Below are positions 31,118 to 36,658 of a stretch of 63,960 nt of DNA, in pieces; positions within the stretch are counted from its first letter, which is position 1; the number at the start of each line of letters is the position of its first letter. The stretch is from Pseudomonadota bacterium (GTDB taxonomy: Bacteria; Pseudomonadota; Gammaproteobacteria; Acidiferrobacterales; UBA6901). Location: the NCBI GenBank assembly GCA_021785795.1, contig JAJYEK010000006.1:1-63960 (forward strand). The letters are read 5' to 3'. The position numbers and the translations under genes are program-made. The notes beneath the pieces are model-generated. The model saw only the letters and a program-made list of their open reading frames with translations, searched no databases and was not told the origin of the DNA.

Positions 31118-31653
31118 GCCTTGCGGTCCGGCCGGTCCCCGCCGGCAGGAAGACGAATTCCGGATTCCGGCACGCCCGGGATCGGCACCTCTTCTTGAAA
31201 GCCGGACCCGCGCGGGCCAGCGATGCTCGGATCGGGTCCGGTTGCCTTTCGCCGACACGGCGGACCCAGGCATCCTCGCCTGTAGCGCTATTCCCCTCGA
31301 CTTTCTTCCTGCCGTTTCGCGGATCTTCTGGCTCGTCCGGGGGCCGATAAGCTCATAAACTCAGCATGGCGGACGGATTGCGGGATTCCGGATCGTCCGG
31401 CGGCAGCGGCAGGATTCAACGTGCCGACCTCGGCGGTCTTGATTCCGGGCTAGTTCTCCAGAACGACAGCGCCTTGTTCCAACAGTACTTTTATTTGCCG
31501 AGCGGGCGGAATTCGTCAATTTTTTGAAAACCCGTCTTTTCCATGGTGTAGTTAATCCCAGTTTTCCCGCCCCCGCGGTTGCTCTAGCCGGAACCGGCGC
31601 CTGGAACGGTGCATCCGGTTTCGGCTGCATATACATCATCATGAGGAGGAGAC
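31118..31653. other. 536-base gap without a gene
   Basis: No reliable coding frame. It opens with a short palindrome behind proS (AGGCCTACTAGGCCT type, no T run). It becomes more A+T-rich from about 31480, where a promoter for the acyltransferase gene would be expected. A GAGGAGG ribosome site lies just before 31654. I found no sigma-54 match here. Confidence 0.4.
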
Positions 31654-32412
31654 ATGGCACGGAACCGCATCCCGACTATCCCTTCAGGTGTTGTCATCCG
31701 GCTTGCGAAGAATGGGCCTGAAACGGAAGCTGCCAATCGCCTGGTTTACCAGAATTACGTCGAGGACGGTTTCTGGGAACCGGATGAGGCGCAACTCAAG
31801 ACCAACCGGCATCTGCACTCGCCCCACCGGGTGGCTTGGATCGCCGTCCGCGGCGGGGAGGTGCTCGGTACGCTGAGCATTATCCGCGACAATCCCCAGG
31901 GCCTGCCTTCGGATGCGGCCCAGCCGGTGCTGATGGACCGGTTGCGGACCGCCGGCGAAACACTGGCGGAGGTGTCCTGCCTCGCGACCCAGCGATCGCG
32001 CGCGGCACCGCAGATCGTCCTGTGGCTGATGGCCTGGGGGATGCAGTATTGTTTCTATCATGAGGGGCTCGACCGCCTGGTGGCTTCTTGCAAGCCCCAG
32101 CACGCCAACTTCTACGAGTCGGTACTATGTTTCAGCAAGCTGAGCGCCCCAATCTATTATGAGTATTCTCACGCGGTGGGCTATCTGATCAGCCTCCAGT
32201 TGCTTGAGGCACACCAGCTTCTGGCGGCCCGGTATCCGGTCGATCCGGTAAGCGGAACGAGCCTGTACCGGTTCCTGCTCGTCGATTCTCATCCGGCGCT
32301 CCAGTTTCCTGCGATGCCTGCCCCGCAGCGTAACCGGGGCGTCGAGCGCCCGGCCCTGGGCGGGGCGCACCGGGATCCAGAGCCGGCTGCCGCCCAGATC
32401 TGCGTGGCGTAA
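31654..32412 (+). CDS. FeeM-like N-acyltransferase, exosortase-system type
   Basis: A 252-residue GNAT-fold protein resembling N-acyl amino acid synthases (FeeM) and the acyltransferases that accompany PEP-CTERM/exosortase loci. Visible features are RLVYQNYVEDGFWE, HRVAWIAVRGGEVLGTLSII (core beta strands), ETLAEVSCLA, and the late WGMQYCFYHEGLDRLVAS and HANFYESVLCF segments typical of these enzymes. The family transfers long acyl chains from acyl-ACP to amines. A strong GAGGAGG site precedes the ATG. It is followed by an intrinsic terminator and then by the membrane regulator. Confidence 0.75.
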   Translation: MARNRIPTIPSGVVIRLAKNGPETEAANRLVYQNYVEDGFWEPDEAQLKTNRHLHSPHRVAWIAVRGGEVLGTLSIIRDNPQGLPSDAAQPVLMDRLRTAGETLAEVSCLATQRSRAAPQIVLWLMAWGMQYCFYHEGLDRLVASCKPQHANFYESVLCFSKLSAPIYYEYSHAVGYLISLQLLEAHQLLAARYPVDPVSGTSLYRFLLVDSHPALQFPAMPAPQRNRGVERPALGGAHRDPEPAAAQICVA

Positions 32413-32476
32413 GGGCGGACGCGGCAAGGTACCGGAATCCTGTGATATACTTTGGTGTGATACGTCACGGAAGAAT

Positions 32477-32516
32477 GACATGACGGAACGGTGCGGACCG
32501 TCATGTCCTGTTTTTT
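32477..32516 (+). terminator. Intrinsic terminator or attenuator ahead of the membrane regulator
   Basis: GACATGACGG (32477-32486) pairs perfectly with CCGTCATGTC (32498-32507), and CTGTTTTTT follows at 32508-32516. It ends transcription from the acyltransferase gene, yet it lies only about 14 bases before the start codon of the next gene and abuts its AGGAGG ribosome site. Regulated read-through is therefore possible. Confidence 0.75.
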
Positions 32517-32529
32517 ATCAGGAGGAGCC

Positions 32530-34059
32530 ATGACCTATGATGCGATCCCGTCACTGGTTGCGCTGGTTTTCAAAGCCGTTCTTCTGGCTTTTGCGTCACG
32601 TTTTCCCGCCCGGAACGCAGTCACGCGCCTTTACCTGGCCCTTCTGGTCCTGCTGTCGTTCCAAAACGTGGTCGAGTTCGTTGGGTTCACGCACTTCGCG
32701 CGCTATGGTCTGGATGACACCATCGTGCGGCTGGGGTACGCCTATTTCGCAATCGGCATCGCTTTTTTTGCGCTGATTCTCCACCTGTCGCTGCGCCTGA
32801 GCATCGACTGCGACGGGCCGTTGAAGTCGTTCCTGCCCTGGCTCTATCTGCCAGTTCTGCCGTTGGAATACCTGCTGCTTTTCACGCACCGGCTGGTCGC
32901 CGGATTCCGGCTTTTCGAGGGTTACACCGTGTTGCGCATCGCCGGGCCTCTGTATTTCCTGTTCGAAGCCTATGTGCCGCTCTATCTGGTCGCCACGGTC
33001 GTTTACCTGGTGTATGGTGCCCGCAATTCTCGTCAGTCGGCCATGCGGCGTACGCGCAACCGCCTGTGGCTGCTCGCGCTGTCGCCGTTCGTGCTGATCA
33101 ACCTGTACCTTGTCATAGCCAACCATTTCGGGCTGGCAAAGATCTCTTCGACGGTGTATCTGCCGCTGGCCATCACTTTTTTCCTTATTGTCACGGCTTA
33201 CGCAACGCATCAGTTCCGGCTTTTCGACATCGAATTCTTCATTCCCTGGTCGAAACTGCGCGGACGGAAGACGGCGTTCTACGCGCGCATCCAAGCTATG
33301 ATCCGGGAGCTCGCCGGGCTGAAGTCCGTGAAGGAGGCGATCGCTCGCCTCGCCGACACGCTCGGCTGTCCGGTGGTGCTGGTCGGCGCGCACAAGGGCG
33401 TACTGGCGATGTCGGCGCCATCGGCGGCATCCGGATTCCCCGAGAGTGCGCTGCAGCCGCTGAAGCACATCGTTGTCGCGGACGAAGTCGCTGAACGCCA
33501 CCCCTCGTTGTACGAGGCTATGCGCCAGCACAATGTTGCGGCGATCGTGCCATTCCACGCTGCAAGCGAAAGTGCGGCCGGCTGGCTTCTGCTGGGCGAT
33601 CCGTTCAGCAGGCAGGTATATACCGCCAGGGACTTCCGGATCGTCGAGCAGCTGTTCGACCGTCTCGCCGACAGCATGCTGGATCATTTCGTGGACCTGC
33701 GCCGGCAACTCGTCGAGACGCGGCGGGAAAGCCGTGCCCTGGGGCAAAGGCTGGTTGAGCTCGAACGCGAGATCACGAGTCTGCGCCGGGAGAATCAGGG
33801 TCTGCGCGACGTACGTCAACGCTGGGCCGTGTCGCACGCACAGGAACTGGCCGCCGCCGAACAGCGTCCGGAGTCTGAGGTTCCGGTCCCGGGCGAGCGG
33901 ACGCTGGATGACGTGCTCTCCGACGTCGAGGCGCGGCTTATCGAGCAGGCGCTGCGGCAGTGCGGAGGCAACAAGTCCGAAGCTGCCCGAATGCTCGGAC
34001 TGCGGCCGAATACGCTGCACTACAAGCTGCAGCGTCACGGGCTGATGCGCGACAAATAG
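32530..34059 (+). CDS. Seven-helix membrane protein with GAF-like domain and Fis-type DNA-binding tail
   Basis: A 509-residue protein with an unusual layout. Residues 1-230 hold seven hydrophobic helices (for example LYLALLVLLSFQNVVEF, YFAIGIAFFALILHLSL, PLAITFFLIVTAYATHQF), like the sensory N-terminus of PrsK-type PEP-CTERM histidine kinases. Residues about 250-395 look like a GAF domain, and 400-445 form a coiled coil (LVELEREITSLRRENQGL). The last 40 residues are a Fis/NtrC-type helix-turn-helix (GGNKSEAARMLGLRPNTLHY). I see no kinase H-box, no ATPase domain and no sigma-54 AAA+ module. It would be a membrane-tethered DNA-binding regulator. The ATG at 32530 follows a clear AGGAGG. Confidence 0.8.
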   Translation: MTYDAIPSLVALVFKAVLLAFASRFPARNAVTRLYLALLVLLSFQNVVEFVGFTHFARYGLDDTIVRLGYAYFAIGIAFFALILHLSLRLSIDCDGPLKSFLPWLYLPVLPLEYLLLFTHRLVAGFRLFEGYTVLRIAGPLYFLFEAYVPLYLVATVVYLVYGARNSRQSAMRRTRNRLWLLALSPFVLINLYLVIANHFGLAKISSTVYLPLAITFFLIVTAYATHQFRLFDIEFFIPWSKLRGRKTAFYARIQAMIRELAGLKSVKEAIARLADTLGCPVVLVGAHKGVLAMSAPSAASGFPESALQPLKHIVVADEVAERHPSLYEAMRQHNVAAIVPFHAASESAAGWLLLGDPFSRQVYTARDFRIVEQLFDRLADSMLDHFVDLRRQLVETRRESRALGQRLVELEREITSLRRENQGLRDVRQRWAVSHAQELAAAEQRPESEVPVPGERTLDDVLSDVEARLIEQALRQCGGNKSEAARMLGLRPNTLHYKLQRHGLMRDK

Positions 34060-34223
34060 GGAATGAGCCGTGCCGCCCTGCGGCGTTTCTGCGGTGACGT
34101 GATACGGCTCCCAGCCGCCCTCAGGGCCTGGCATTTGGATCCGACGGCGCTCAGGGTCTTCGGACTGACCTGTCCGGGACGGGACCCCGGGTTTCCAGGA
34201 GAAGACGGATGAGCCCGAACGCT

Positions 34224-34249
34224 TCTATCGGCGATCCAAGGCCGATAGA
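34224..34249. promoter_or_regulatory. Inverted repeat, candidate activator site
   Basis: TCTATCGGC (34224-34232) and GCCGATAGA (34241-34249) are perfect inverted copies 8 bases apart. The centre lies about 100 bases upstream of the sigma-54 -24 element, a standard distance for an enhancer-binding protein. No T run follows, so it is unlikely to be a terminator. Confidence 0.6.
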
Positions 34250-34334
34250 GCCCCGTTATCCTGCCCTGTATCCCCCCGCATATTTTTAGATAGTTTCCAA
34301 AAATGTGCCCGATTATGCCGGCTCCGGCCATTTA

Positions 34335-34350
34335 TGGCACGACTCTTGCT
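34335..34350 (+). promoter_or_regulatory. Sigma-54 promoter (-24/-12)
   Basis: TGGCACGACTCTTGCT matches the consensus TGGCACR-N4-TTGCW at every defined position: GG at -24 and GC at -12. It points at the PEP-CTERM-type gene 214 bases downstream. PEP-CTERM genes in exosortase bacteria are often under sigma-54 and PrsR control. Confidence 0.85.
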
Positions 34351-34488
34351 TCGTGTCTTGCAGGGTACCGTTGCCGGAATGAGCGGGGCACGGACCCCGG
34401 CCATTGGCGGCGCCGGCGCCCGGAAAGCGATTGAGGCAAGGTGTGCGGCCGGGCCGCTTGCGGCGAGAGTCTCGCCCTGCTGTCCCGA

Positions 34489-34522
34489 ACCCGCTTAAGT
34501 GCGGGTCGCGAACGGTGACCCG
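34489..34522 (+). promoter_or_regulatory. Two overlapping, mutually exclusive leader hairpins
   Basis: ACCCGC (34489-34494) can pair with GCGGGT (34501-34506). CGGGTC (34502-34507) can alternatively pair with GACCCG (34517-34522). The two helices share the same bases, so only one can form at a time. They lie between the sigma-54 promoter and the ribosome site. No known riboswitch consensus is seen. Confidence 0.35.
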
Positions 34523-34563
34523 GCGGTGTCTGTGCGATGGCGAATGTGGAAGGGAGAAAACGA

Positions 34564-35298
34564 ATGTCGTTACGATTGTCCATGAAGTCCGTCAAGTCCA
34601 GAACGAATGGCAGGAGCGGCTTTTTGTGGATGCCGCTGCTCGTCCCGATCCTGGGCGGCGCCCTGTTGATGCAGGTACCAACTGATGCCTTCGCAAGTAC
34701 CGTCACCTTCAACTTCGGTGCGTTGATCTCGGGGCCTAAGTCCCCCGCAGGCGCGCTGCCATGGATGCAGGCCACGTTCGTCGATAATGGCAGCGGTGGT
34801 GGCGTGACCCTGACCTTGATGGCCTACGGCCTGACTGGGAGCGAGAACCTCAGCGCGGTGGACTTTAATATCGATCCGGTCCTCGAGCGTCAGTTGCGGC
34901 GTCTGCGCTTCGCCTACGCCGGAGGCACTGGAACCGCCGCAAGGCCAAGTGCTAGCAAGAACCGGTTCAAGGTCCCGGGCGATGGTAGCTACGACATCCG
35001 GTTCGTTTTCCCGAAAAATGGCGGCTTCAACGCCGGTGATAGCGTCAGCTATCGCATCACGGGAATCACCGGCCTGACCGCGGCCTCCTTCAACTTCCCG
35101 AGCCTGTGTACGACCGGATGCGGTACGGGCAGCAACTACGCTGCAGCCCAGGTCCAGAACATCCCGGGCAGCACCACCGCCAGCGCCTGGATCGGAAGCA
35201 AGGTGGGTGTTGTCCCGATCCCCGCCGCAGGCTGGCTGTTCGGGTGGGGATTCCTCGGTCTGATCGGTATTGCGCGGCGTCGGCGTCGTCCGCTCTAG
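34564..35298 (+). CDS. Secreted protein with PEP-CTERM-type (VPxPAA) sorting signal
   Basis: A 244-residue exported protein. The N-terminus carries a basic stretch and a hydrophobic signal (MPLLVPILGGALLMQV, cleavage near DAFA-ST). The mature part is a beta-rich domain of unknown function with two cysteines (CTTGC). The C-terminus is the exosortase target variant VPIPAAGWLFGWGF, then LGLIGIARRRRR: motif, helix and basic tail. Exosortase would remove this tail and surface-attach the protein. A perfect sigma-54 promoter lies upstream. GGAAGGGAG selects the ATG at 34564 over that at 34537. No exosortase gene is in the window. Confidence 0.85.
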   Translation: MSLRLSMKSVKSRTNGRSGFLWMPLLVPILGGALLMQVPTDAFASTVTFNFGALISGPKSPAGALPWMQATFVDNGSGGGVTLTLMAYGLTGSENLSAVDFNIDPVLERQLRRLRFAYAGGTGTAARPSASKNRFKVPGDGSYDIRFVFPKNGGFNAGDSVSYRITGITGLTAASFNFPSLCTTGCGTGSNYAAAQVQNIPGSTTASAWIGSKVGVVPIPAAGWLFGWGFLGLIGIARRRRRPL

Positions 35299-35581: not shown

Positions 35582-36250
35582 CTAGAAGCGGTAGCCGATC
35601 CCCAGCTGGATGACCGGCCACCACTTGTATGAGGCGGCATCACTGGCCACTGTGGCGGCGGCCTGCTGCACGTCGGCTTGCAGTGCCGGATTGCCGGCGG
35701 CGCCCGTCGCCGAAAGCGACACCTTGGGGGAGCCCTGATAGATGGCCCCGACGTCTAGCAGCAGGGTTAATCGGCCGTTGTGCAGGGAATTCCCAAACCC
35801 GATGCCAAGATAGGGGCTCACCGAGTTGAAGTCCATCGTGCCGGTGAGGCTGCCGACCTGGGTAGCGCTGTAAGTGTTGCCGTTGATCGTGTAGGTGCCG
35901 CCGGCATTTGGGACCGCGGTGAGGTCCACTTTGTTGCCGTTGTAGAGCAGTCCGCCGCTCAGACGGAACACGCCGTGAAACGGATACCAGTCGAGCAGTG
36001 CGCCGGCAGACCGAAGCCGCAGATTCCCGTCGTAATCGATGCTGTCGTAGGTCTTGCTGTGGTTGTAGTCCAGCGTGTTGAACAGGATACGCCCCTCGAG
36101 GGTGTGGTTCTCCAGCGGGAACGTGAGGCCGAGGCCGTAGCCGAGCGTGCCCACATGGGCGTCGACGGCCGGAGCAGCGTGGACCGCAAAGGCAGTGAGA
36201 GACAGACCCAGAAACGCAACCGCGCGCGCCGACTTCCTGTTCCAATGCAT
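35582..36250 (-). CDS. Outer-membrane beta-barrel protein
   Basis: A 222-residue protein with a signal peptide (VAFLGLSLTAFAVHAA) and alternating beta-strand pattern. Segments such as GTLGYGLGLTFPL, SVSPYLGIGFGNSL and LTLLLDVGAIYQGSP are present, and the end VIQLGIGYRF carries the C-terminal phenylalanine recognised by the Bam machinery. It resembles OmpW/porin-like small barrels, and no function can be assigned. GGGGAGAAA upstream of 36250 supports this start; the longer open frame is not needed. It converges with the PEP-CTERM gene and diverges from purU. Confidence 0.8.
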   Translation of the reverse strand: MHWNRKSARAVAFLGLSLTAFAVHAAPAVDAHVGTLGYGLGLTFPLENHTLEGRILFNTLDYNHSKTYDSIDYDGNLRLRSAGALLDWYPFHGVFRLSGGLLYNGNKVDLTAVPNAGGTYTINGNTYSATQVGSLTGTMDFNSVSPYLGIGFGNSLHNGRLTLLLDVGAIYQGSPKVSLSATGAAGNPALQADVQQAAATVASDAASYKWWPVIQLGIGYRF

Positions 36251-36658
36251 GATACGATTTCTCCCCATTGATCTGTTGCCGTGCCGGGAGCCGCGAATCC
36301 CGGAATCGTGTGCGATGCCATACTTGAGTTTAGTAGTGCGGTGCGCGTATGCAACCCGACGGCGTCGGATTGGCGCTGTGACGCCAGTCAGCCTGCGGGC
36401 ATACCGGGCATCGCTGTTTTGGGTGCAGAATGGATCGTCGCGTGCCGGCGACTCCGGTTTGGAAGCGCGGGCGCGGCGAGTCGTAGGCCTTGACGATTGC
36501 GCTGTTTCCCGCAACGCTTGAGGAGAGACCGTGAAGGGGATTCGAATGGCCGACAGTCGTACCGGCAGTCGCGGCATGGTCGGTGCAATTACCGGCGGGG
36601 CAGGTCCGGAGACCGCGCGTTATAACACTCCGAGCCTGGGGGTCCGGGTGCGCCCGCA
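36251..36658. other. 408-base divergent gap between the barrel gene and purU
   Basis: No gene is seen. A possible promoter reading right is TTGAGT (36324-36329) and TATGCA (36348-36353) with an 18-base spacer, though it lies 300 bases before purU. The leftward promoter of the barrel gene must also lie here, but I cannot pick it out with confidence. Confidence 0.35.

What the first reader, a model, noticed from the sequence alone, without database searches (positions are those of the whole stretch)
32530..34059. Membrane-tethered Fis-type regulator without kinase or AAA+ domain
Seven helices like PrsK-type sensors, a GAF-like domain and a coiled coil lead directly to a Fis/NtrC helix-turn-helix. 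This would be a one-component, membrane-bound DNA-binding protein that merges the input of a PEP-CTERM sensor kinase with the output end of an enhancer-binding protein. It sits about 170 bases from an inverted repeat and 280 bases from a sigma-54 promoter. I know of no described system with this layout.
Basis: partly seen in the sequence, partly recalled or inferred. Interest (0 to 1): 0.72.

Follow-up and report, generated by a model that had tools for sequence, protein, structure and literature searches.

The report
Seven-helix membrane gene regulator, acyl-enzyme partner
The gene encodes a protein predicted to sit in the cell membrane with seven helices, shaped much like the receptors of animal cells, and to carry a DNA-binding tail; many of its relatives in mostly uncultured bacteria sit beside a gene for a fatty-acyl enzyme, often with the same short DNA site in front of it, which points to an undescribed way of sensing a fatty signal and answering directly at the DNA.

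Summary
It belongs to a family (291 homologues). Long relatives carry a dead AAA+-like insert (Walker-A Lys lost in 54 of 54, no GAFTGA), lost on the tree about ten or more times; short relatives are 7TM-HTH only. Two models resemble GPCRs. Conserved instead is an acyl-enzyme gene upstream: FeeM-type acyltransferase in the window and four relatives, an OleA/FabH-like ketoacyl synthase (KASIII) in 9 of 20 other long-form and 8 of 11 short-form genes. A dyad, TCAA-N4-TTGA, lies before it (5 of 5 FeeM, 7 of 9 KASIII of long forms; best of all dyads tested). Best reading: a membrane-embedded one-component regulator that controls, and probably senses the product of, its neighbouring acyl enzyme. 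DNA binding, ligand and sign are inferred. A new variant of the transmembrane transcription regulators.

The parts
31514..31531 (+). Candidate operator CGTCAATTTTTTGAAAAC upstream of the acyltransferase gene; dyad TCAA-N4-TTGA at 31516-31527
   Evidence: Identical in G001, G003, G004 and with 2 mismatches in G002, one copy per genome at up to 2 mismatches; only copy in the window at up to 3 mismatches, 0.04 expected; same dyad in front of ketoacyl-synthase genes of distant relatives. Binding not tested.
31654..32412 (+). FeeM-type N-acyltransferase gene (252 aa), conserved upstream partner
   Evidence: PF21926 E 2.5e-32; PDB 2g0b FeeM E 4.6e-8; directly upstream of the regulator in the window and in L001-L004
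32413..32529 (+). Intergenic leader of the regulator; conserved blocks (TATAAT-like, CGTCACGGAAG, CATGAyGG...TCATG, ribosome site)
   Evidence: Alignment of five loci; function not tested
32530..34059 (+). Membrane-bound one-component regulator, 509 aa
32536..33210 (+). Residues 3-227: seven-helix membrane domain, GPCR-like fold, strand pair 123-138 between helices 4 and 5
33253..33615 (+). Residues 242-362: GAF-like domain
   Evidence: AF2 model; Foldseek best hits CodY GAF, E 0.002-0.011; no Pfam GAF match
33625..33858 (+). Residues 366-443: long helix, probably a coiled coil; long relatives carry the dead AAA+-like insert between this helix and the HTH
   Evidence: AF2 model; alignment A1
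33904..34035 (+). Residues 459-502: Fis-type helix-turn-helix
   Evidence: HTH_8 E 4.6e-17 at 463-502; helices in the model

Best explanation
The protein belongs to an undescribed family of membrane-embedded one-component transcription regulators. A GPCR-like seven-helix domain in the inner membrane (N-terminus out, C-terminus in) senses a hydrophobic acyl compound, most likely the product or substrate of the enzyme encoded next to it (FeeM-type N-acyltransferase here, OleA/FabH-like ketoacyl synthase in relatives). The signal passes through the GAF-like domain and a coiled coil, which would make it a dimer, to a Fis-type HTH that binds a TCAA-N4-TTGA dyad in front of the enzyme gene and sets its expression, closing a feedback loop without phosphorylation or ATP. 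Shown by computation: architecture, fold resemblance of the models, conserved gene pairing, shared dyad, dead or missing AAA+. Inferred: that this HTH binds this dyad, that the 7TM binds an acyl ligand, dimerisation, and the direction of control. The dyad overlaps a possible -35 element (TTGAAA, 17 bases, TGTAGT; my reading, not listed by the promoter scan), which would fit repression.
For: Family: 291 homologues; 17 of 57 genomes of the order have a full-length member. Pairing: FeeM gene directly upstream in 5 of 5 close members; KASIII gene directly upstream, same strand, in 9 of 20 other long-form genes and in 8 of 11 short-form genes. Co-occurrence: the special KASIII (301-524 bits, against at most 183 for other matches) is in 9 of 17 regulator-bearing and 0 of 40 other genomes of the order, p 2.7e-6; leaving out the four genomes that gave rows to the profile, 5 of 13 against 0 of 40, p 4.5e-4. 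Co-loss: in G001 the KASIII at the ancestral locus is in fragments and no regulator is beside it. Operator: of all 4-base dyads with gaps 0-12, TCAA-N4-TTGA is first, in 7 of 9 KASIII and 5 of 5 FeeM upstream regions; in 57 genomes both exact copies of ATTCAAAATTTTGAAT lie upstream of KASIII, and 7 of 43 copies with up to 2 mismatches lie upstream of KASIII or the regulator (about 0.004 expected by a rough estimate). KASIII Cys, His and Asn invariant in 10 of 10. GPCR-like fold in two models from separate alignments.
Against: 9 of 20 other long-form genes show neither enzyme beside them (one, L043, has only about 500 bases visible upstream); of 11 short forms 2 have none and 1 has it only on the other strand. 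8 of 17 regulator-bearing genomes of the order have no special KASIII. The strict dyad is missing upstream of KASIII in L011 and L012 (degenerate copies there), is weak and 297 bases away in L044, and is not seen before most short-form enzyme genes. 36 of the 43 genome copies of the site are not upstream of these genes. No ligand, binding or expression data exist. Foldseek gave no match at E<=1e-3, so the GPCR resemblance rests on VIA-align of predicted models. Neighbouring chromosome genes are also partly conserved (hemH, thiD, thiE, hemL types by my reading), so some linkage could be plain synteny.
Confidence: 0.6

Rival explanations
1. It regulates its neighbouring acyl enzyme through the dyad, but senses the state of the membrane (fluidity, acyl composition, envelope stress) and not a specific product: a lipid-homeostasis regulator.
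For: Partner enzymes act on acyl chains; beta-oxidation genes (fadE, fadA, fadJ types, read by eye) lie near three long-form loci (L007-L009); the sensor is nearly all membrane helices with short loops.
Against: FeeM and KASIII are unrelated enzymes, and a swap of the enzyme beside the same receptor fits a signal synthase better; polar residues inside the helices are conserved (K15, N46, E49, H85 at 90% or more).
Confidence: 0.25
2. One reading: a fusion of a PEP-CTERM sensor (PrsK) with the output of an enhancer-binding protein, acting at the sigma-54 promoter and inverted repeat at 34225-34350.
For: A sigma-54-like site and a gene with weak PEP/VPLPA-CTERM-type matches (all under their cut-offs) follow the regulator in the window; long relatives keep AAA+ remnants; true PrsK occurs in three of the four closest genomes, G001, G003, G004.
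Against: No profile similarity to PrsK; PrsK does not clearly track the regulator (5 of 17 with, 4 of 40 without, p 0.11); the PEP-CTERM-like gene is not found in L001-L005; no AAA+ here, and a dead one in 54 of 54 long relatives. The PrsK/PrsR pair of these genomes could serve such a promoter (inference).
Confidence: 0.05
3. The regulator and enzyme only share a neighbourhood; the protein has other, distant targets and the dyad belongs to another regulator.
For: Nearly half of the other long-form genes lack the enzyme next door; 36 of 43 copies of the site lie elsewhere, among them copies with 2 mismatches upstream of flagellin in G004 and of a minor-pilin cluster and a Fur-like gene in G005.
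Against: One-way co-occurrence of the special KASIII with the regulator, co-loss in G001, and the dyad shared between FeeM- and KASIII-linked loci.
Confidence: 0.08
4. A decaying remnant of an enhancer-binding protein with no regulatory role.
For: Repeated loss of the AAA+-like part; six of seven suspect relatives scanned have no HTH_8 match (P0087, P0101, P0104, P0109, P0114, P0057) and P0047 has a weak one, 23.7 bits.
Against: HTH_8 in 72 of 75 members and a strongly conserved sensor core; 81-86% identity over the full length to three other genomes.
Confidence: 0.02

Closest known systems
Transmembrane transcription regulators (ToxR, TcpP, CadC and others; PMC10269533, part 1 of section 4, section 5 and found passages read)
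   Same: DNA-binding domain plus at least one membrane segment in one polypeptide, the two features by which that survey mined them; it reports members with up to 22 membrane segments
   Different: The survey finds about 56% single-pass; here seven helices, a GAF-like relay and a C-terminal Fis HTH. The term Fis as a domain did not occur in its main text; its supplementary domain tables were not seen
NtrC/PrsR-type enhancer-binding proteins
   Same: C-terminal Fis HTH; long relatives keep an AAA+-like remnant before it
   Different: No AAA+ in this protein; Walker A Lys, Walker B Glu and GAFTGA gone in all 54 long relatives examined, so no sigma-54 activation by the known mechanism
HisKA_7TM sensor kinases (Pfam PF16927)
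   Same: The 7TM domain matches PF16927 in 45 of 75 members at E<=1e-3
   Different: No HisKA or HATPase match; output is a DNA-binding domain
PrsK of the PEP-CTERM system (PMC1569441, section 7 and found passages read)
   Same: Multi-helix membrane sensor; both occur in 5 of 57 genomes of the order
   Different: No detectable profile similarity; PrsK is a kinase
LuxI/LuxR-type acyl signalling and FeeM N-acyl amino acid synthase
   Same: Acyl-product enzyme gene beside the gene of the likely receptor-regulator; FeeM family over the Pfam cut-off (likeness of FeeM to LuxI is recalled)
   Different: Receptor is a predicted membrane protein of another fold; in many relatives the enzyme is a ketoacyl synthase
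GPCRs
   Same: Seven-helix fold, strand pair between helices 4 and 5 (as in the second outer loop of many class A receptors, recalled), predicted N-out/C-in
   Different: No sequence relation shown, no G protein; resemblance of predicted models only

Membership tests
Transmembrane transcription regulator (one-component) | DNA-binding domain in the protein | tested here: met
   HTH_8 E 4.6e-17; 72 of 75 homologues
Transmembrane transcription regulator (one-component) | At least one membrane segment | tested here: met
   Seven membrane-length helices in the model; HisKA_7TM in 45 of 75 homologues; prediction, not experiment
Transmembrane transcription regulator (one-component) | Acts on transcription from the membrane | not testable with these tools
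   Needs a reporter or binding assay
Sigma-54 enhancer-binding protein | AAA+ domain with Walker A and GAFTGA | tested here: not met
   No AAA+ family in the window protein; 0 of 54 long relatives have the Walker A Lys or GAFTGA
Sigma-54 enhancer-binding protein | Fis-type HTH at the C-terminus | tested here: met
PrsK (TIGR02916) | Match to TIGR02916 and kinase domains | tested here: not met
   No TIGR02916 hit listed at E<=1; hhalign with four PrsK prob 0.5
HisKA_7TM sensor domain (PF16927) | Match over the gathering score (28.6 bits) | tested here: inconclusive
   Window protein itself not listed; relative P0006 30.6 bits; 45 of 75 members at E<=1e-3
GAF domain | GAF fold or Pfam GAF match | tested here: inconclusive
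   Foldseek to CodY GAF, probability 1.00, E 0.002-0.011; no Pfam GAF
GPCR superfamily | Seven-helix GPCR fold | tested here: met
GPCR superfamily | Sequence homology to GPCRs or G-protein coupling | tested here: not met
   No GPCR family among Pfam matches at E<=1 and no PDB sequence hit in the 7TM part at E<=0.01; coupling not testable
FeeM N-acyl amino acid synthase (neighbour gene) | PF21926 over the cut-off | tested here: met
   112.3 bits against 27
Ketoacyl synthase III / OleA-like (neighbour in relatives) | Cys-His-Asn catalytic residues | tested here: met
   C125, H268, N298 invariant in 10 of 10; ACP_syn_III domains in 3 of 3 scanned; which residues are catalytic is recalled

The most novel reading that the evidence does not exclude
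A prokaryotic receptor with a GPCR-like fold that is itself the transcription factor, paired with the synthase of its own acyl ligand: a further type of lipid signalling or quorum sensing beside LuxI/LuxR and two-component sensing, in which the synthase has been exchanged (ketoacyl synthase for FeeM-type acyltransferase) while receptor and operator stayed.
Probability: 0.3. Interest if true: 0.9.

Novelty: new variant of a known kind. Interest (0 to 1): 0.72.

Why it matters
If true, bacteria have a lipid-signal circuit with one protein from membrane receptor to DNA, built on a GPCR-like seven-helix domain, and a natural series (dead AAA+ insert, repeated loss, minimal 7TM-HTH) that shows how an ATP-driven activator could become a simple one-component regulator. 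The partner enzyme and a named operator make it directly testable, and short forms occur in a named species, Arenicella xantha.

Tried and rejected
PrsK kinship of the sensor: tested by profile comparison, nothing. Sigma-54/inverted-repeat target: the segment with the promoter is not found beside the regulator in L001-L005, and the motif-1 end TTTACA that PMC1569441 describes upstream of PEP-CTERM genes is not in 34060-34334 on either strand. FabH-type genes in general as partner: rejected, since 55 of 57 genomes have a match and only the high-scoring group tracks the regulator. A regulon beyond the operon: eight further sites or loci looked at; candidates near flagellin (G004) and minor pilins/Fur (G005) are not above what chance could give, and two of the 1-mismatch copies (both G055) lie inside called genes. 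The promoter scan did not list the putative FeeM promoter. Literature: nothing on this family seen; these were word searches of open-licence PMC papers, judged by title and start of abstract, and one search returned no paper at all. In the VIA-align lists no microbial rhodopsin is among the 50 rows shown; this does not exclude one.

Choices that shaped counts. Only 120 of 291 homologues were listed and used, and that search scored only the 7994 candidates sharing most words. The tree has 143 sequences (those 120, which include the window protein, plus 23 from loci), on 384 columns of the 7TM-GAF part, rooted on L014; several nodes are weak. The loss count is 14 with irreversible loss, 11 changes by Fitch parsimony, 10 as lower bound after collapsing nodes under 0.9, against 22 if the insert were gained. 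Nine proteins under 500 aa were counted with the insert-less form, among them five without an HTH match and L044, whose frame is interrupted. The 10 enhancer-binding proteins compared with the long forms were picked from 26 loci because they hold P-loop and GAFTGA, so their 10 of 10 is by construction. The KASIII profile A4 was built from regulator neighbours, four of them from genomes of the order (G005, G006, G008, G010). The pattern ATTCAAAATTTTGAAT was drawn from L007 and L041 (G006, G045) after looking at upstream regions, among them those of G004, G008, G010, G043 and G057; sites in G005, G001 and G042 had not been looked at then, the one in G010 not noticed. L006 was left out of the dyad test because its KASIII starts at the contig end. 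The class searches scored at most 2 or 6 candidates per genome, so copies can be missed. The dyad in L001 is 135 bases from the gene; the -305 printed comes from its short upstream stretch. Completeness of the 57 genomes is not told.

Full report
What is there. The ORF 32530-34059 encodes 509 residues. Its end is a Fis-type helix-turn-helix (HTH_8, E 4.6e-17, residues 463-502); nothing in Pfam or NCBIfam at E<=1 points to a kinase or AAA+ part. An AlphaFold2 model from 75 sequences has mean pLDDT 86: seven membrane-length helical segments in residues 3-227, a strand pair at 123-138 between helices 4 and 5, a GAF-like domain 242-362, a single helix 366-443 and the HTH. K+R counts of the loops (with five residues of flank) are 3, 2, 4 and 7 on the side predicted inside and 0, 2, 3 and 1 outside, a modest bias that places the HTH in the cytoplasm.

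A family, not a curiosity. The protein search gave 291 homologues, 120 listed. Those fall in length groups: 507-576 aa like the window (form A), 834-872 aa (form B) and five of 451-468 aa. Form B has, between coiled coil and HTH, about 330 residues of which the later part scores as AAA+ (Sigma54_activ_2 between 6.8e-7 and 0.021 in four of the six form-B proteins scanned, AAA_lid_14 in five); the first part looks REC-like to me, without a profile match. The AAA+-like part is dead: 54 of 54 form-B proteins lack the Walker A lysine, 0 of 54 keep the Walker B glutamate and 0 of 54 contain GAFTGA. On a tree of 143 sequences, rooted on the Arenicellales protein L014, A and B are mixed: 11 changes by parsimony, 14 losses if loss is irreversible, 22 gains if the insert were gained, 10 losses as lower bound with weak nodes collapsed; shuffled labels need at least 37. 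So the window protein most likely descends from an ancestor with a dead AAA+-like part, which was lost many times.

Short forms. A class-wide search (369 genomes, drawn from a larger group) found proteins of 301-310 aa that are just the seven-helix domain plus an HTH; HTH_8 is over its cut-off in two of three scanned and below it in L048 (15.5 bits against 22). Their 7TM is homologous to that of the window (hhalign prob 99.9, E 2e-36). Full-length short forms were found in 5 of 369 genomes (11 copies). One, L048, is identical to a protein of Arenicella xantha (P0121).

Conserved neighbours. In the window and in L001-L004 the gene directly upstream is a FeeM-type acyltransferase (PF21926 112 bits; PDB FeeM 2g0b E 4.6e-8). 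Its close family is small: 19 proteins in the large database; the longest-contig lengths of three (30735, 90711, 11987) equal those of regulators P0005, P0006 and P0011, which suggests shared contigs. In the order of G003, PF21926 is in 5 of 57 genomes, four of them beside the regulator; the fifth (G007) is a weaker match on another contig. In 20 other long-form genes, the gene directly upstream on the same strand is a ketoacyl synthase III-like enzyme in 9 (L006, L007, L009, L011, L012, L040, L041, L044, L046, the last read in two frames near a contig end); two further regulators lie on the other side of it in L041 and L046; 9 have neither (L008, L010, L013, L037, L038, L039, L042, L043, L045). 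In L014, from another order, it lies upstream on the opposite strand. In short forms it is directly upstream in 8 of 11, on the opposite strand in L091, and not seen in L089 and L092. The enzyme keeps Cys, His and Asn (10 of 10); its best PDB hits are a group named 3-oxoacyl-ACP synthase III (3row and others; that these are Xanthomonas OleA is recalled), then FabH.

Co-occurrence and co-loss. In 57 genomes of the order, 17 have a full-length regulator. The special KASIII group (301-524 bits) occurs in 9 of the 17 and 0 of the other 40 (p 2.7e-6); without the four genomes that supplied rows to the profile it is 5 of 13 against 0 of 40 (p 4.5e-4). Other matches, taken as ordinary FabH, score at most 183 bits and are found in nearly all genomes. 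G004 has both pairs: FeeM with form A, KASIII with form B. G001, which has FeeM with form A, still holds the KASIII locus between the same neighbours, but the KASIII is in two fragments and no regulator is beside it. Enzyme and regulator seem to have decayed together.

A shared operator. Aligned upstream regions of the five FeeM genes show one strongly conserved block, in the window 31514-31531 and onward, with one copy per genome. Its dyad TCAA-N4-TTGA also stands before KASIII genes. Of all 256 four-base dyads with gaps 0-12, it ranks first upstream of the enzymes of long-form loci: 7 of 9 KASIII and 5 of 5 FeeM; the next two (5 and 4) are shifted readings of the same site, then at most 3. 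In 433 kb of 25 family loci it occurs 21 times against 4.5 expected, 16 between called genes. In the 57 genomes ATTCAAAATTTTGAAT with up to 2 mismatches occurs 43 times (the backward control pattern 9); both exact copies lie upstream of KASIII (G045, G006), as do copies in G005, G010, G004 and before the decayed KASIII of G001, all at 118-152 bases from the start of the KASIII match; one in G042 lies about 430 bases before the regulator. Seven of 43 against about 0.004 expected by a rough estimate; four of the seven were not used when the pattern was drawn (p about 2e-11). The other 36 copies are unexplained or chance, among them three 1-mismatch copies in genomes without the regulator (G046, G055 twice). 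Short-form loci mostly do not share the dyad.

Mechanism. The likeliest reading is a feedback regulator in the membrane: the seven-helix domain senses an acyl compound tied to the neighbouring enzyme, and the HTH controls that enzyme's promoter. Conserved polar residues inside the helices (K15, N46, E49, H85 at 90% or more) could hold a polar head group; this is inference. Two unrelated acyl enzymes beside the same receptor, with the same dyad, suggest that the receptor's input is a compound of the acyl class and not a protein contact. Whether it represses or activates is open.

PrsK-type sensor: no similarity found. Sigma-54: promoter and repeat belong to a segment with a gene that has weak PEP/VPLPA-CTERM-type matches and a further gene on the other strand without a Pfam match; tblastn finds neither protein in L001-L005, and in L002, L003 and L005 purU follows the regulator. 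Three of the four closest genomes have a true PrsK, whose partner PrsR could serve such a promoter (PMC1569441, section 7; PMC9850573, passages read).

Known or new. One-component membrane regulators are a known, large class (PMC10269533, part 1 of section 4 and section 5). I saw no paper on a 7TM-Fis family, on its dead-AAA+ form or on the enzyme pairing (searches; open-licence PMC, titles and abstract starts). I therefore call it a new variant of a known kind, with a bolder reading (new lipid-signal circuit on a GPCR-like receptor) at probability 0.3.

Noticed in passing
window 34225-35298 and 35582-36577: Inverted repeat, strong sigma-54-like site (TGGCACGACTCTTGCT) and a gene for a short protein with weak PEP/VPLPA-CTERM-type matches, then a gene on the other strand that reads like an outer-membrane barrel (my reading; no Pfam match); tblastn finds neither protein in L001-L005, so the segment was inserted here or lost there.
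   Followed up: partly
L038 8853-11603 (-): A 916-aa open frame in which a periplasmic binding protein (Peripla_BP_6 E 3.9e-50) runs without a stop into a family member: a possible natural fusion with an extra ligand-binding domain, or an assembly error.
   Followed up: no
L041 8918-13462 and L046 8798-12369: Two different family members flank one ketoacyl synthase gene (paralogue - KASIII - regulator), which suggests paired or heteromeric receptors.
   Followed up: partly
P0101, P0104, P0109, P0114 (451-454 aa) and P0087: Relatives with the 7TM match but no HTH_8 match, four of them one clade: possible anti-regulators or partners.
   Followed up: partly
L130 site 4007 and L132 site 3984: Operator-like sites with 2 mismatches 338 bases upstream of a minor-pilin-like cluster (and 107 upstream of a Fur-like gene) in G005 and 194 bases upstream of a flagellin-like gene in G004; in short-form loci L048 and L049 a FimT/GspH-like gene (my reading) lies beside the KASIII. 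A surface-appendage regulon is possible.
   Followed up: partly
window 32413-32529: Conserved leader of the regulator gene with a CATGA...TCATG inverted repeat, longer in the window (ACATGACGG...CCGTCATGT): possible leader hairpin or second binding site.
   Followed up: no
L007, L008, L009 upstream flank; L006, L007, L009, L011, L012 downstream: Genes that read as fadE, fadA and fadJ types lie upstream on the other strand in three loci, and a small uncharacterised protein (fam6; one member scanned, no Pfam or NCBIfam match) lies just downstream of the regulator in five.
   Followed up: no
L001 2746-4591: IS200-like and ISL3-type transposase genes directly downstream of the regulator in a close relative.
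   Followed up: no
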